Source: a virus
Direction: 5' to 3' (one strand)
DNA length: 64,000 nt
Virus record (IMG/VR): IMGVR_UViG_3300047480_000598
Location: 98,336 to 162,335 of that record
Shown here piece after piece: positions 10,730 through 14,177 of the stretch. Below the pieces are notes generated by a model, which was not told the DNA's origin, did not search any database, and saw nothing but the letters and a program-made list of their open reading frames with translations. Position 1 is the first letter of the stretch, and every line of letters begins with the position of its first letter. A program made the translations under genes and the position numbers.

Positions 10730-13066
10730 TTAAATTCTGCTGCCCGACATTCCGTTCGTAATAGCTTTTGTTTGTCTGCTGACACCATCTACTACTCGAT
10801 CAGTATGTGATATTAATTCTTTTATTGACATATTTAACTTTACAAGCTCATCTTTAACATCAGTCATGGTGGTTTTATCAACCGATTGTACTGTTGTTTG
10901 ATCAGATTGTTGCTGTTCTGGTTTCTTCAACGGTTCTTCTGTTGTAGTTGTTGTTTTTGTATTAGTTTTTTCTTTTGGTGGTTCTTTTAATTCTGAAGAC
11001 AAAGTCGATTGCCAAGATTTAAGGGCATTACCCATTCCCGGCATATTTTTTAATGGATCAAAAGTTTTTTGATTCATTGTAGCATCTATCATTTTTTGCT
11101 TCATACCCAATGCAGCATTGATTTCATTATCTTTTTTAGTCGTAGCAGGTGAACCATTAAATCCTGTAACACCCATATCTTTTAATGTTGTGTTTAAATC
11201 TTTTGATGCAATATCGGATAAACCTTTTGCAGCTTTTGATATTGTTTCAGGAGAATATGCGTGTTGAAATACTCCGTCTGGTCCAGTCATTCCTCGTTGC
11301 AAAGTTCTTAAAAACTCTGATATACGAGCACCTTGAGGAGAATCTTCGGCAAATTCAGTTAGTGTTTGATTGTTTGTGTACCATTTTTCGCCATTTGAAT
11401 CTGTACGTGTTGAAAATAAATTAGCAATATCTTTTAATTGCTGTTCAGTTATTACAGCTTCTTTACCATGTAACTCAACTAATTCCCCATCTGGATCAAA
11501 TTCTTCAAAAACTTTACCTGTTGCACCTAATGTTCCAGTTCGTCGTTTCTTTGTTGTTACCGGAATTGATGTTGCTTCTTTAGCTGCATTTTTAAGTGAT
11601 TCCTTTCCTGTGTCGACCATATCGCCGATCTTTTTAATAGTACCTTCAGGTGTTGCCATTTCTTTTAGGAAGTTATTAAATTTTGGTAACGAATCTTTAA
11701 CCGAATTTCCTAATTCATCGTTTAATTTTTTAAATCCATCGGATGTTGTAGCAGCTATAACTTTACCAAGATTATCTAAAGAGTTAATAGATCTTGAAGC
11801 TGCTGCACCTAAATCTGCTTCTCCGGATGGTAGTTCACCTTTATCTCGACTAATACCGGCTGCTCTCATTTCTTCAATTGCTGCTCGAGCTTGTTCCGGA
11901 GTAGTACCTTCTCCCATTTCTTTTTGTTTTGCAGCAACCGCTTTTTCTAATCCTAATTCTTGCTGGAAGACCTTTGCTGCGGTCCCTCCAAATATCTGTC
12001 CTTCTGTCGATACAATGCCTGTTAAGAAACTTTTATCTCTCATTCGTTCAACAATTGCTGCTTGTGCATCAATTTTTGATTTTTCCATTGTAGCTTCGTC
12101 GCCTGTTTCGATAGATTCGGCTACTTTTCTTAATTGTTCCGCTGCTTGTCCGTATGATGTAACTAATTCGACATCCTCTTTTGACCTCGGGCCACCTGTT
12201 GCATAAATTCCTACTACTCTTTTTGCAGATTCTGACATGCCAACTGTTGTCTTTTCAAGATTTTCTGCAAACTTTTCGCCTTTTAGCATAATCATTGCTT
12301 GTATATCAGGGCGACTTTGTTCTTTCTTTAGCTCTTCTTCTTCTTGTTTTCTACTTTTGCCTGTAACTTGTGCAGCTAAATCGATCTCAGTAGCTAGATA
12401 AACTGCGGCTGCCGCTGCTTCTTCTCTAGACTTTTTATCTGTTATATCTAATCCCCGGCGATTCATTGCACTAATTTGTGTAATTTCGGCCAGTTCTCTT
12501 GAACTCATACCGGCAGCTTTTAAATCTCTAGCAACATCGGACTCAGCTACATCACTTAACATAGTAGTAAATGCTTTAGCAGACTTGTCCATGCCACCGC
12601 CTAGGCCTGCAAGATCTTGTGAACTCTGTGCAACAATTTCAGCAAACTCTTCCATAGTTAAATGACCATGCATTACTGCTTGATTAAAGTCACCTAGGTT
12701 ACCGTTCATAGTAATACCATATTGTGCAGTTTGTTTCATGGTATTATTAACTTGTAATACTACTCCACCTAATGTAGTAAGGGCATCGCCTGCAATATTT
12801 CCAACAGTTCCTCCAAATTTTGTTAAAACAAAGTCGGCAGCTTTGATAGCGTCGGCTGTAGTTGCTGTACCTGTGGATATTTTATTGAATACTGCAAACA
12901 TACTATCGGCTGCTGTATTCAATTTAGAACCAAAGTCGGATAGCATAGGACTTCCGCCTGTCGGAGGAGGGCTAGATGGAGGTCTTGGTCTATTGCCAGT
13001 TAGTCGATTATTTTCTTCTAACGCTGCTGCTAACCGTTGAAAATCGGAACTTGTTGGATCACTCAT
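10730..13066 (-). CDS. Probable tail tape-measure protein
   Basis: A 778-residue, mostly helical protein. The N-terminus is Pro-rich (RPRPPSSPPPTGG). A middle helical region includes LGDFNQAVMHGHLTMEEFAE and AGMSSRELAEITQISAMNRR, and the C-terminal tail contains a Thr/Lys stretch. Composition (Ala, Lys, Glu, Gly, long amphipathic helices) and length fit a tape measure; at about 0.15 nm per residue it would span about 115 nm. It lies beside the gp26-like gene, which looks like a frameshifting tail chaperone, the usual neighbour of tape-measure genes. T4's counterpart gp29 is shorter (590). I cannot show homology to gp29 directly, so the role is inferred from context. Confidence 0.6.
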   Translation of the reverse strand: MSDPTSSDFQRLAAALEENNRLTGNRPRPPSSPPPTGGSPMLSDFGSKLNTAADSMFAVFNKISTGTATTADAIKAADFVLTKFGGTVGNIAGDALTTLGGVVLQVNNTMKQTAQYGITMNGNLGDFNQAVMHGHLTMEEFAEIVAQSSQDLAGLGGGMDKSAKAFTTMLSDVAESDVARDLKAAGMSSRELAEITQISAMNRRGLDITDKKSREEAAAAAVYLATEIDLAAQVTGKSRKQEEEELKKEQSRPDIQAMIMLKGEKFAENLEKTTVGMSESAKRVVGIYATGGPRSKEDVELVTSYGQAAEQLRKVAESIETGDEATMEKSKIDAQAAIVERMRDKSFLTGIVSTEGQIFGGTAAKVFQQELGLEKAVAAKQKEMGEGTTPEQARAAIEEMRAAGISRDKGELPSGEADLGAAASRSINSLDNLGKVIAATTSDGFKKLNDELGNSVKDSLPKFNNFLKEMATPEGTIKKIGDMVDTGKESLKNAAKEATSIPVTTKKRRTGTLGATGKVFEEFDPDGELVELHGKEAVITEQQLKDIANLFSTRTDSNGEKWYTNNQTLTEFAEDSPQGARISEFLRTLQRGMTGPDGVFQHAYSPETISKAAKGLSDIASKDLNTTLKDMGVTGFNGSPATTKKDNEINAALGMKQKMIDATMNQKTFDPLKNMPGMGNALKSWQSTLSSELKEPPKEKTNTKTTTTTEEPLKKPEQQQSDQTTVQSVDKTTMTDVKDELVKLNMSIKELISHTDRVVDGVSRQTKAITNGMSGSRI

Positions 13067-13128: not shown

Positions 13129-13956
13129 ATGGTTAATAACCCGTTACAGCAATTTTTTAGACAGCCAAAAATTTTTATCAGCTTACCTTCGTTAGGAGTT
13201 TACAATAATCCCGGAGTTATTCAAGGTGATGTATCAAGTTTGCCTGTTTACGGAATGACAGGTATGGACGAGATATTAATGAAGACTCCGGACGCATTAA
13301 TGACAGGAGATAGTACTGTTAAAGTAATTGAAAGTTGTTGTCCTGCAATTAAAGACGGATGGGATGTTTCTACATTAGATGTTAATTTAATTTTAATTGC
13401 TATCAGAATTGCAACATACGGTGATAGCTTAGAAGTCACGCACACATGCACACATTGCGAAACGGAAAACAATTACGATATTAAATTAACTGCATTGATT
13501 GATCATTATAATACTTTTAAATATGATAATCGATTAGTATTAAAAGATCTATCGATATCTGTTAAACCATTAAATTACAAGCAATCTACTGCATTTTCTC
13601 TAAAGAACTTTGAGTTACAACAAAAAGTTTCTCAGATTCAAACAATTAGCGACACATTAGAAAGAAATGCATTAGTAGCAGCACTATTTCAAGATTTAAG
13701 TGTACTTCAAAAAGAATTATTTAAAGAAAGTATTGAATCTATTCACATAGGTACAATGGAAGTTACTGAACAAGAATATATTAATGAATGGTTGAATAAT
13801 TGTGATCAATCTTATTACGAAAGTATTAAGAAGCACATTAATTTAACTAAAGATTCTATACAGATACCGCCGTTTACAGTAAATTGCGGAGAGTGCAGTA
13901 AGGAAAATTACATCACTATAGACTTAGATCAATCAAATTTTTTCGGAAAAGCCTAA
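13129..13956 (+). CDS. gp26-like baseplate hub / tail assembly chaperone
   Basis: A 275-residue protein. I chose ATG 13129 (MVNNPLQQFFRQPKIFISLP) because GGAG lies 7 nt before it, while ATG 13102 would fall at or before the transcription start of the late promoter. It contains IKDGWDVSTLDVNLILIAIR and two Cys pairs, CTHC (about residue 106) and CGEC (about 258), probably binding zinc. This matches the T4 gp26 (T4 baseplate, PF12322-type) family as seen in marine myoviruses. The 3' end carries a U UUU UUC slippery heptamer, and the -1 frame runs on for 77 codons, the pattern of G/GT-type tail chaperones. The short form ends SNFFGKA. Confidence 0.7.
   Translation: MVNNPLQQFFRQPKIFISLPSLGVYNNPGVIQGDVSSLPVYGMTGMDEILMKTPDALMTGDSTVKVIESCCPAIKDGWDVSTLDVNLILIAIRIATYGDSLEVTHTCTHCETENNYDIKLTALIDHYNTFKYDNRLVLKDLSISVKPLNYKQSTAFSLKNFELQQKVSQIQTISDTLERNALVAALFQDLSVLQKELFKESIESIHIGTMEVTEQEYINEWLNNCDQSYYESIKKHINLTKDSIQIPPFTVNCGECSKENYITIDLDQSNFFGKA
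13938..13944 (+). promoter_or_regulatory. Candidate -1 ribosomal frameshift site T TTT TTC
   Basis: In the gp26-like reading frame the codons are AAT TTT TTC GGA. The heptamer U UUU UUC fits X XXY YYZ, so both tRNAs can re-pair after slipping back one base. It lies 10 nt before the zero-frame stop (13954-13956). The -1 frame is then open from 13944 to 14177. Confidence 0.6.
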
Positions 13957-14177
13957 TTGGTAAGTCTGTTGAAGATATCGAGCAGAAGCTAATTAGGCTA
14001 GATACTGAAATAAAAGAGTTTAAAGAAGAGCTATTTAGAATCAGTTGGCATATGAGGGGAGGTCTTTCTATGAATGATCTCTTATTTTATTACTCACACG
14101 ATGATAGAGTCATGCTTTATAACATCATTAAAGAAAACATTGACTTAACTAAGAATGCTCGTATGCCGTTTCTTTAA
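13944..14177 (+). CDS. C-terminal extension of gp26-like protein made by -1 frameshift
   Basis: A 77-codon open frame, beginning RKSLIGKSVEDIEQ after the slip, with a heptad-like helix (KLIRLDTEIKEFKEELFRIS), then WHMRGGLSMNDLLFYYSHDD and IIKENIDLTKNARMPFL before the stop. There is no ATG, GTG or TTG in frame from 13944 until ATG 14052, yet the sequence reads like protein throughout, which argues for entry by frameshifting; the fused product would be 349 residues. The alternative is a 35-residue protein from ATG 14070, which has a strong GGGGAGG site 7 nt upstream. The stop overlaps by 4 nt the end of the convergent gene on the minus strand. Confidence 0.65.
   Translation, partial: RKSLIGKSVEDIEQKLIRLDTEIKEFKEELFRISWHMRGGLSMNDLLFYYSHDDRVMLYNIIKENIDLTKNARMPFL

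What the first reader, a model, noticed from the sequence alone, without database searches (positions are those of the whole stretch)
13938..14177. Candidate programmed -1 frameshift extends the gp26-like protein by 77 residues
Seen: the gene at 13129-13956 ends 10 nt after a T TTT TTC heptamer in the correct phase for -1 slipping. The -1 frame is open from there to 14177 and encodes a helical, protein-like stretch (KLIRLDTEIKEFKEELFRIS, WHMRGG). The first 36 codons of that stretch contain no ATG, GTG or TTG, so conventional initiation cannot make them. Known: tail-assembly genes of many dsDNA phages (lambda G/GT type) make a short and an extended chaperone by frameshifting next to the tape-measure gene. 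Inference: this T4-like phage uses the same device, with the probable tape measure just across the divergent promoter. I know of no description of this for the T4 gp26 group.
Basis: partly seen in the sequence, partly recalled or inferred. Interest (0 to 1): 0.78.

Follow-up and report, generated by a model that had tools for sequence, protein, structure and literature searches.

The report
Frameshifted tail chaperone in T4-like phage
A virus of bacteria related to T4 appears to make a short and a long version of one tail-building helper protein from a single gene by having some ribosomes slip back one letter; the sequence evidence is very strong, but this trick is well known in other phages and has already been discussed for T4's relatives.

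Summary
The gene at 13129-13956 is a T4 gp26/gp51-family protein (PF12322). T TTT TTC (13938-13944) lies in phase for -1 slippage, and the -1 frame stays open to 14177, giving a 349-aa fusion. In relatives chosen only by their gp26 part, 91/91 distinct loci keep T TTT TTC and the open -1 frame. The extension is under purifying selection, and most relatives lack an early start codon. The same heptamer sits at the same place in cyanophage P-SSM5, phiAS5, RaK2, 121Q, CBB and Atu_ph07. In P-SSM5 and phiAS5 the -1 frame is the ORF labelled 'gp51', homologous to the tail of T4 gp51. T4 instead has two PF12322 genes, 26 (short) and 51 (long). Best reading: a lambda G/GT-type tail-assembly chaperone with slippery site plus hairpin. 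This is not a new kind: Vladimirov et al. [quoted passage not shown] No expression data exist here. Homology of the window's extension to the gp51 tail is unresolved.

The parts
13129..13956 (+). gp26/gp51-family gene (PF12322 T4_baseplate, phrog_150): short form, 275 aa; the putative tail assembly chaperone TAC-N
   Evidence: Pfam E 2.9e-17, PHROG E 4.4e-18; only PF12322 gene in the 162-kb virus record; Foldseek matches to T4-like baseplate hub assembly proteins, E 1e-20
13938..13944 (+). slippery heptamer T TTT TTC, -1 phase
   Evidence: sequence; invariant in 91/91 distinct IMG/VR relatives and 34/35 wider genes, the exception being T TTT TTT in Vibrio phage VmeM-32
13954..13956 (+). zero-frame stop TAA, just after the heptamer and inside the 5' arm of the stem
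13950..13961 (+). 5' arm of downstream stem-loop, 5-6 nt after the heptamer (A13950 is an optional extra pair)
   Evidence: 55-nt fold -22.5 kcal/mol, z -6.2; covariation in 17 relatives
13988..13999 (+). 3' arm of the stem-loop
13938..14177 (+). -1 frame extension (79 codons from the heptamer; 77 residues added beyond the shared FF), predicted helical
   Evidence: open in 91/91 relatives, 79 codons in 90 of them; pN/pS 0.42 in the -1 frame versus 1.05 and 1.86 in the others; AlphaFold2 pLDDT 88
14055..14072 (+). Shine-Dalgarno-like AGGGGAGGT and ATG 14070: possible internal start for a 35-aa product, not conserved in relatives
   Evidence: a start at this codon with an SD-like motif in 9/91 relatives
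10730..13066 (-). divergent 778-aa gene between gp26 and the gp20-like portal; probable tape measure protein (inferred)
   Evidence: starts about 57-71 nt from the gp26 ATG in relatives, length 630 to over 970 aa; profile match to the protein at the same place in phage 121Q, probability 98.1; no PHROG or Pfam name

Best explanation
The gene encodes the tail assembly chaperone of a T4-like myovirus. Most ribosomes stop at 13956 and make the 275-aa short form. A minority, paused by the stem-loop at 13950-13999 while decoding TTT TTC, slip back one base on U UUU UUC, bypass the stop inside the stem's 5' arm, and make a 349-aa long form with a helical C-terminal domain. By analogy with lambda gpG/gpGT, many short and few long copies would coat the tape measure protein (probably the divergent 778-aa gene), and the extension would recruit tube subunits. 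Shown here: family, heptamer, open and selected -1 frame, covarying stem. Inferred: that the shift occurs, its rate, and the chaperone role.
For: PF12322/phrog_150 membership. Relatives ascertained through gp26 only: 91/91 with T TTT TTC and an open -1 frame, 62/91 with no ATG/GTG/TTG before codon 33, 77/91 with at least 10 contiguous bp starting 3-6 nt after the heptamer versus 4/455 control stretches. TTT TTC is expected in 0.17 of genes from the family's own Phe codon usage, but seen in 34/35. pN/pS in codons 9-34, before the first conserved ATG, is 0.54 in the -1 frame versus 0.92 and 1.74 in the other two. Stem: 96.3% of cells paired, 16 double-changed cells versus 3.7 in shuffles, and all slid versions worse. 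Same device at the same place in Phosso, Atu_ph07, 121Q, Cassandra, RaK2, CBB, XaC1, P-SSM5, LG08 and phiAS5. In P-SSM5 the extension matches phrog_634 'baseplate hub assembly catalyst' (2e-29) and the C-terminal end of phrog_150, and the cyanophage-group extensions match the T4 gp51 tail at probability 98.7 (shuffles at most 4.9). T4 gp26 and gp51 are both PF12322.
Against: No proteomic or ribosome-profiling evidence. Fourteen of 91 relatives lack a 10-bp stem, so it is not universal. Phosso, Atu_ph07 and 121Q also have an ATG overlapping or next to the gp26 stop, and Cygsa01 has lost the heptamer (C ATT TTC) but has TAATG, so a separate downstream product is possible in some lineages. The window clade's extension is not significantly related to the T4 gp51 tail by profile (14.6%, at the top of the shuffle range; 22% pooled with jumbo phages versus shuffles at most 9.1). 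The chaperone role and tape-measure identity are inferred.
Confidence: 0.92

Rival explanations
1. The -1 frame is a separate small gene translated by its own initiation (ATG 14052 or 14070) or by reinitiation after the gp26 stop, and the T-run is incidental.
For: In the window AGGGGAGGT lies 6 nt before ATG 14070. Phosso, Atu_ph07 and 121Q have an ATG at or near the gp26 stop, and Cygsa01 lacks the heptamer but has TAATG.
Against: Only 4/91 relatives have an SD-like motif before the codon-39 ATG and 9/91 have a start plus SD at codon 45, whereas 79/91 have one before gp26 itself. Selection acts on the codons upstream of these starts. It does not explain the invariant heptamer or the covarying stem. 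Only 14/91 have any start codon within the first 14 codons.
Confidence: 0.04
2. Transcriptional slippage on the six-T run, not ribosomal frameshifting, gives mRNAs with shifted frames.
For: A run of six T is present in all members with the site, and T TTT TTT occurs in one (VmeM-32).
Against: Six T is short for RNA polymerase slippage (established knowledge, not tested). The C that ends the run is kept in 34/35 genes although longer T runs would slip more, and the run is always in the X XXY YYZ phase with, in most, a stem 5-6 nt downstream, as expected for ribosomal frameshifting.
Confidence: 0.03
3. The frameshift happens, but the stem-loop is a transcription terminator or other mRNA element unrelated to it, and only the heptamer matters.
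For: The arms lie in coding sequence, and some pairing could follow from conserved residues (LI.L ... LV.L). Fourteen of 91 relatives do without a 10-bp stem.
Against: No T run follows the stem. Pairs change on both sides, including A-U to G-C in L015/L017/L019, and the distance from the heptamer is nearly constant. No Rfam family matches above its gathering score.
Confidence: 0.1

Closest known systems
Lambda G/GT (and P2 E/E+E') tail assembly chaperone frameshift
   Same: Short tail-assembly protein whose gene ends just after a slippery heptamer; -1 frame extends it by a further domain; short and long forms from one gene; probable tape measure gene adjacent
   Different: No detectable sequence relation was looked for; heptamer U UUU UUC; conserved stem-loop; the probable tape measure gene is divergent rather than downstream on the same strand
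T4 gp26 and gp51 (baseplate hub assembly chaperones)
   Same: Same PF12322 family; T4 gp51 is a PF12322 domain plus a short C-terminal tail, like the frameshift product
   Different: T4 has two separate genes, no slippery site and no open -1 frame after gp26; homology of the window clade's extension to the gp51 tail is not established
Cyanophage and Aeromonas T4-like phages with a short 'gp51' ORF after gp26 (P-SSM5, phiAS5)
   Same: T TTT TTC at the same place and the ORF in the -1 frame; the database entry treats it as a separate gene 51
   Different: Shorter extension, same strand as the following large gene, different sequence family (phrog_634)
Pakpunavirus Adele and other Vandenendeviridae tail assembly chaperone frameshift (PMC12846349)
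   Same: Myovirus chaperone gene with conserved poly-T slippery site and an uninterrupted -1 frame
   Different: Different phage families and different slippery motif (GTTTTT)

Membership tests
PF12322 / phrog_150 (T4 gp26-gp51 family) | profile match above the curated cut-off | tested here: met
   63.5 bits versus cut-off 24.5; phrog_150 E 4.4e-18
G/GT-type frameshifted tail assembly chaperone | canonical X XXY YYZ slippery heptamer near the 3' end in -1 phase | tested here: met
   T TTT TTC 13938-13944, conserved 91/91
G/GT-type frameshifted tail assembly chaperone | -1 frame open beyond the stop, conserved, no conserved independent start | tested here: met
G/GT-type frameshifted tail assembly chaperone | located beside the tape measure gene | tested here: inconclusive
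   divergent 778-aa gene of variable length in relatives, no named family
G/GT-type frameshifted tail assembly chaperone | both short and long proteins made, long form a minority | not testable with these tools
   needs proteomics or a reporter
G/GT-type frameshifted tail assembly chaperone | proteins needed for tail assembly, bind tape measure and tube protein, absent from the virion | not testable with these tools
   needs genetics and binding assays
-1 programmed frameshift signal with stimulatory RNA structure | stem-loop about 5-9 nt after the heptamer with compensatory changes | tested here: met
   that it stimulates frameshifting is not tested
gp51 C-terminal tail (phrog_634) | extension homologous to the T4 gp51 tail | tested here: inconclusive
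   cyanophage group yes (98.7%); window clade 14.6%, pooled 22%; no PHROG hit for the window's extension at E 0.01

The most novel reading that the evidence does not exclude
A single gene 26 with U UUU UUC plus a downstream stem-loop is the ancestral state of the whole T4-like supergroup, and T4's essential gp51 is the frameshift product made permanent by duplication and fusion; the many 'gp51' and 'hypothetical' ORFs after gp26 in cyanophage and jumbo phage records are halves of frameshift proteins annotated as separate genes.
Probability: 0.6. Interest if true: 0.55.

Novelty: new member of a known kind. Interest (0 to 1): 0.42.

Why it matters
It adds a well-supported case to the conserved long-tailed-phage frameshift, which a 2016 review (PMC5009743) called widespread 'except T4'. 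It gives a clear slippery site plus hairpin that can be tested in E. coli, a simple account of why T4 needs both gp26 and gp51, and a reason to re-annotate the small ORFs after gp26 in cyanophages and jumbo phages as parts of a frameshift product.

Tried and rejected
tblastn of the extension in known phages found nothing, so relatives were found through gp26. Rfam gave only a sub-threshold hit, drum RNA, taken as chance. Foldseek of the gp26 model against PDB found no credible match; the extension model's best viral hits are small uncharacterised phage proteins, with a weak match to a 'baseplate hub assembly catalyst' (rank 16, probability 0.33). PHROG and Pfam did not name the divergent gene, and tblastn found no relative of it in known phages. 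Homology of the window extension to the gp51 tail was tried with several groupings and not established. A +1 shift was rejected: that frame closes shortly after the stop in most loci and carries no conserved protein. The overlapping A AAT TTT heptamer one codon upstream was set aside because it is not conserved (preceding codon AAT, AGT, CAT, GAT, TCT or CGT).

Full report
What is there. The gene at 13129-13956 is a member of the T4 gp26/gp51 family (PF12322, E 2.9e-17, 63.5 bits against a cut-off of 24.5; phrog_150 'baseplate hub', 4.4e-18). It is the only PF12322 gene in the 162,335-base virus record that holds the window. Its last codons are AAT TTT TTC GGA AAA GCC TAA, so the heptamer T TTT TTC at 13938-13944 is in phase for simultaneous -1 slippage. 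The -1 frame is open to 14177 and would add 77 residues to the 272 shared ones (349 aa). Its first possible start codon is ATG 14052, followed by ATG 14070.

Is it more than chance. The first set of relatives and a second set found with gp26 peptide patterns (418 relatives in IMG/VR, the best 80 fetched) were ascertained without looking at the extension. After removing duplicates and truncated ends, 91 loci remain. All 91 have T TTT TTC in phase and an open -1 frame, 79 codons long in 90 of them; 62 have no ATG, GTG or TTG before codon 33. These loci are not independent samples, but gp26 protein identities to the window are about 40-57%. Phe codon usage elsewhere in the same genes predicts TTT TTC in 0.17 of cases; it is seen in 34 of 35 in a wider set, the exception being T TTT TTT. 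In the window itself only one other ORF of at least 100 aa ends near an in-phase heptamer with a long open -1 frame.

The -1 frame is protein-coding. Pooled pairwise comparison gives pN/pS 0.42 in the -1 frame against 1.05 and 1.86 in the other two frames. For codons 9-34, which lie before the first conserved ATG, it is 0.54 against 0.92 and 1.74. The residues FFR, K29, W37, M39, R40, G41, D56 and N67 are invariant in 24 members. AlphaFold2 predicts four helices with mean pLDDT 88. Internal initiation is not conserved: an SD-like motif precedes the codon-39 ATG in 4/91 and a start codon with SD at codon 45 occurs in 9/91, against 79/91 with an SD before gp26 itself. The strong AGGGGAGGT before ATG 14070 in the window is therefore a feature of few members.

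Directly downstream, 13950-13961 pairs with 13988-13999; the 55-nt stretch folds at -22.5 kcal/mol, z -6.2. In 17 relatives with the stem, 96.3% of cells pair, 5 of 11 pairs have changes on both sides, 16 cells are double-changed against 3.7 in shuffles, and every slid version is worse. These 17 were picked because they have the stem, so the percentage paired is biased upward; on the unselected 22 the signal remains (28 double-changed cells against 10.6). In 77 of 91 loci a helix of at least 10 contiguous pairs starts 3-6 nt after the heptamer, against 4 of 455 control stretches from the same genes. The zero-frame stop lies inside the 5' arm. Heptamer, a spacer of 5-6 nt and a stem-loop are the standard layout of a bacterial -1 frameshift signal (established knowledge). 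Hairpins also follow the heptamer in P-SSM5, LG08, Atu_ph07 and Cassandra, by eye from the folds, with z-scores there of -3.5, -2.9, -2.6 and -2.7.

How far it extends. The same heptamer at the end of gp26 with an open, related -1 frame occurs in Sinorhizobium phage Phosso, Agrobacterium phage Atu_ph07, E. coli 121Q, Pseudomonas Cassandra, Klebsiella RaK2, Pectobacterium CBB and Xanthomonas XaC1. Their extensions are homologous to the window clade's (probability 99.2 for Phosso/Atu, 95.7 for the 121Q/RaK2 group). It also occurs, with a shorter extension, in cyanophage P-SSM5, Rhizobium LG08 and Aeromonas phiAS5, and as T TTT TTT in Vibrio VmeM-32. In P-SSM5 and phiAS5 the -1 frame is annotated as a separate gene 'gp51 / baseplate hub assembly catalyst'; it matches phrog_634 (2e-29 and 2e-15) and, as a profile, the tail of T4 gp51 (probability 98.7; column shuffles at most 4.9). 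Pseudomonas phage Cygsa01 is an informative exception: it has C ATT TTC instead, and an ATG overlapping the stop.

T4 itself. T4 gp26 and gp51 are both PF12322 (8.8e-64 and 3.9e-52). gp51 is a PF12322 domain followed by about 50 further residues. After T4 gp26 there is no slippery site and the -1 frame is closed. RB43 likewise has a long gp51-like gene, with a further open frame that ends like gp26 directly after it. So one group makes two proteins from one gene and the other from two genes. The window clade's extension cannot be tied to the gp51 tail by sequence: 14.6% alone, equal to the top of its shuffle range, 22% pooled with jumbo phages against at most 9.1 in shuffles. I treat that as suggestive only.

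Function. In lambda, gpG and gpGT coat the tape measure protein and the T part recruits tube subunits; neither stays in the virion (PMC5009743). T4 gp26 and gp51 are listed as hub assembly chaperones (PMC3004832). The divergent gene 10730-13066 starts about 57-71 nt from gp26 in its relatives, varies from 630 to over 970 aa among them, and matches the protein at the same place in 121Q (98.1%). That fits a tape measure protein but does not prove it.

Known or new. The G/GT frameshift is classical, and the 2016 review calls it widespread 'except T4'. [quoted passage not shown] the paper is not held, so I know only its title and what others say. [quoted passage not shown] I therefore file this as a new member of a known kind. 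What I did not find described is the covarying stem-loop in this lineage and the invariance of U UUU UUC across this range of phages, but absence from the open-access library is weak evidence of novelty.

Noticed in passing
   Followed up: yes
window 14055-14072: Shine-Dalgarno-like AGGGGAGGT before an in-frame ATG inside the extension; could give a 35-aa product in this phage, not conserved
   Followed up: partly
window 10730-13066 (minus strand): Divergent gene next to gp26 whose length varies from 630 to over 970 aa among relatives; probable tape measure without any database name
   Followed up: partly
L065 (Pseudomonas phage Cygsa01) around 1797-1812: Relative with the slippery site lost (C ATT TTC) and a TAATG overlap instead, a natural change of expression strategy
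   Followed up: partly
L061 2193-2366 and L064 2262-2384: Annotated 'gp51' ORFs of P-SSM5 and phiAS5 lie in the -1 frame of gp26 and are probably halves of a frameshift product
   Followed up: yes
window about 58873 (minus strand): A 106-aa ORF ends near an in-phase A AAA AAT with a -1 frame open for 168 codons
   Followed up: no
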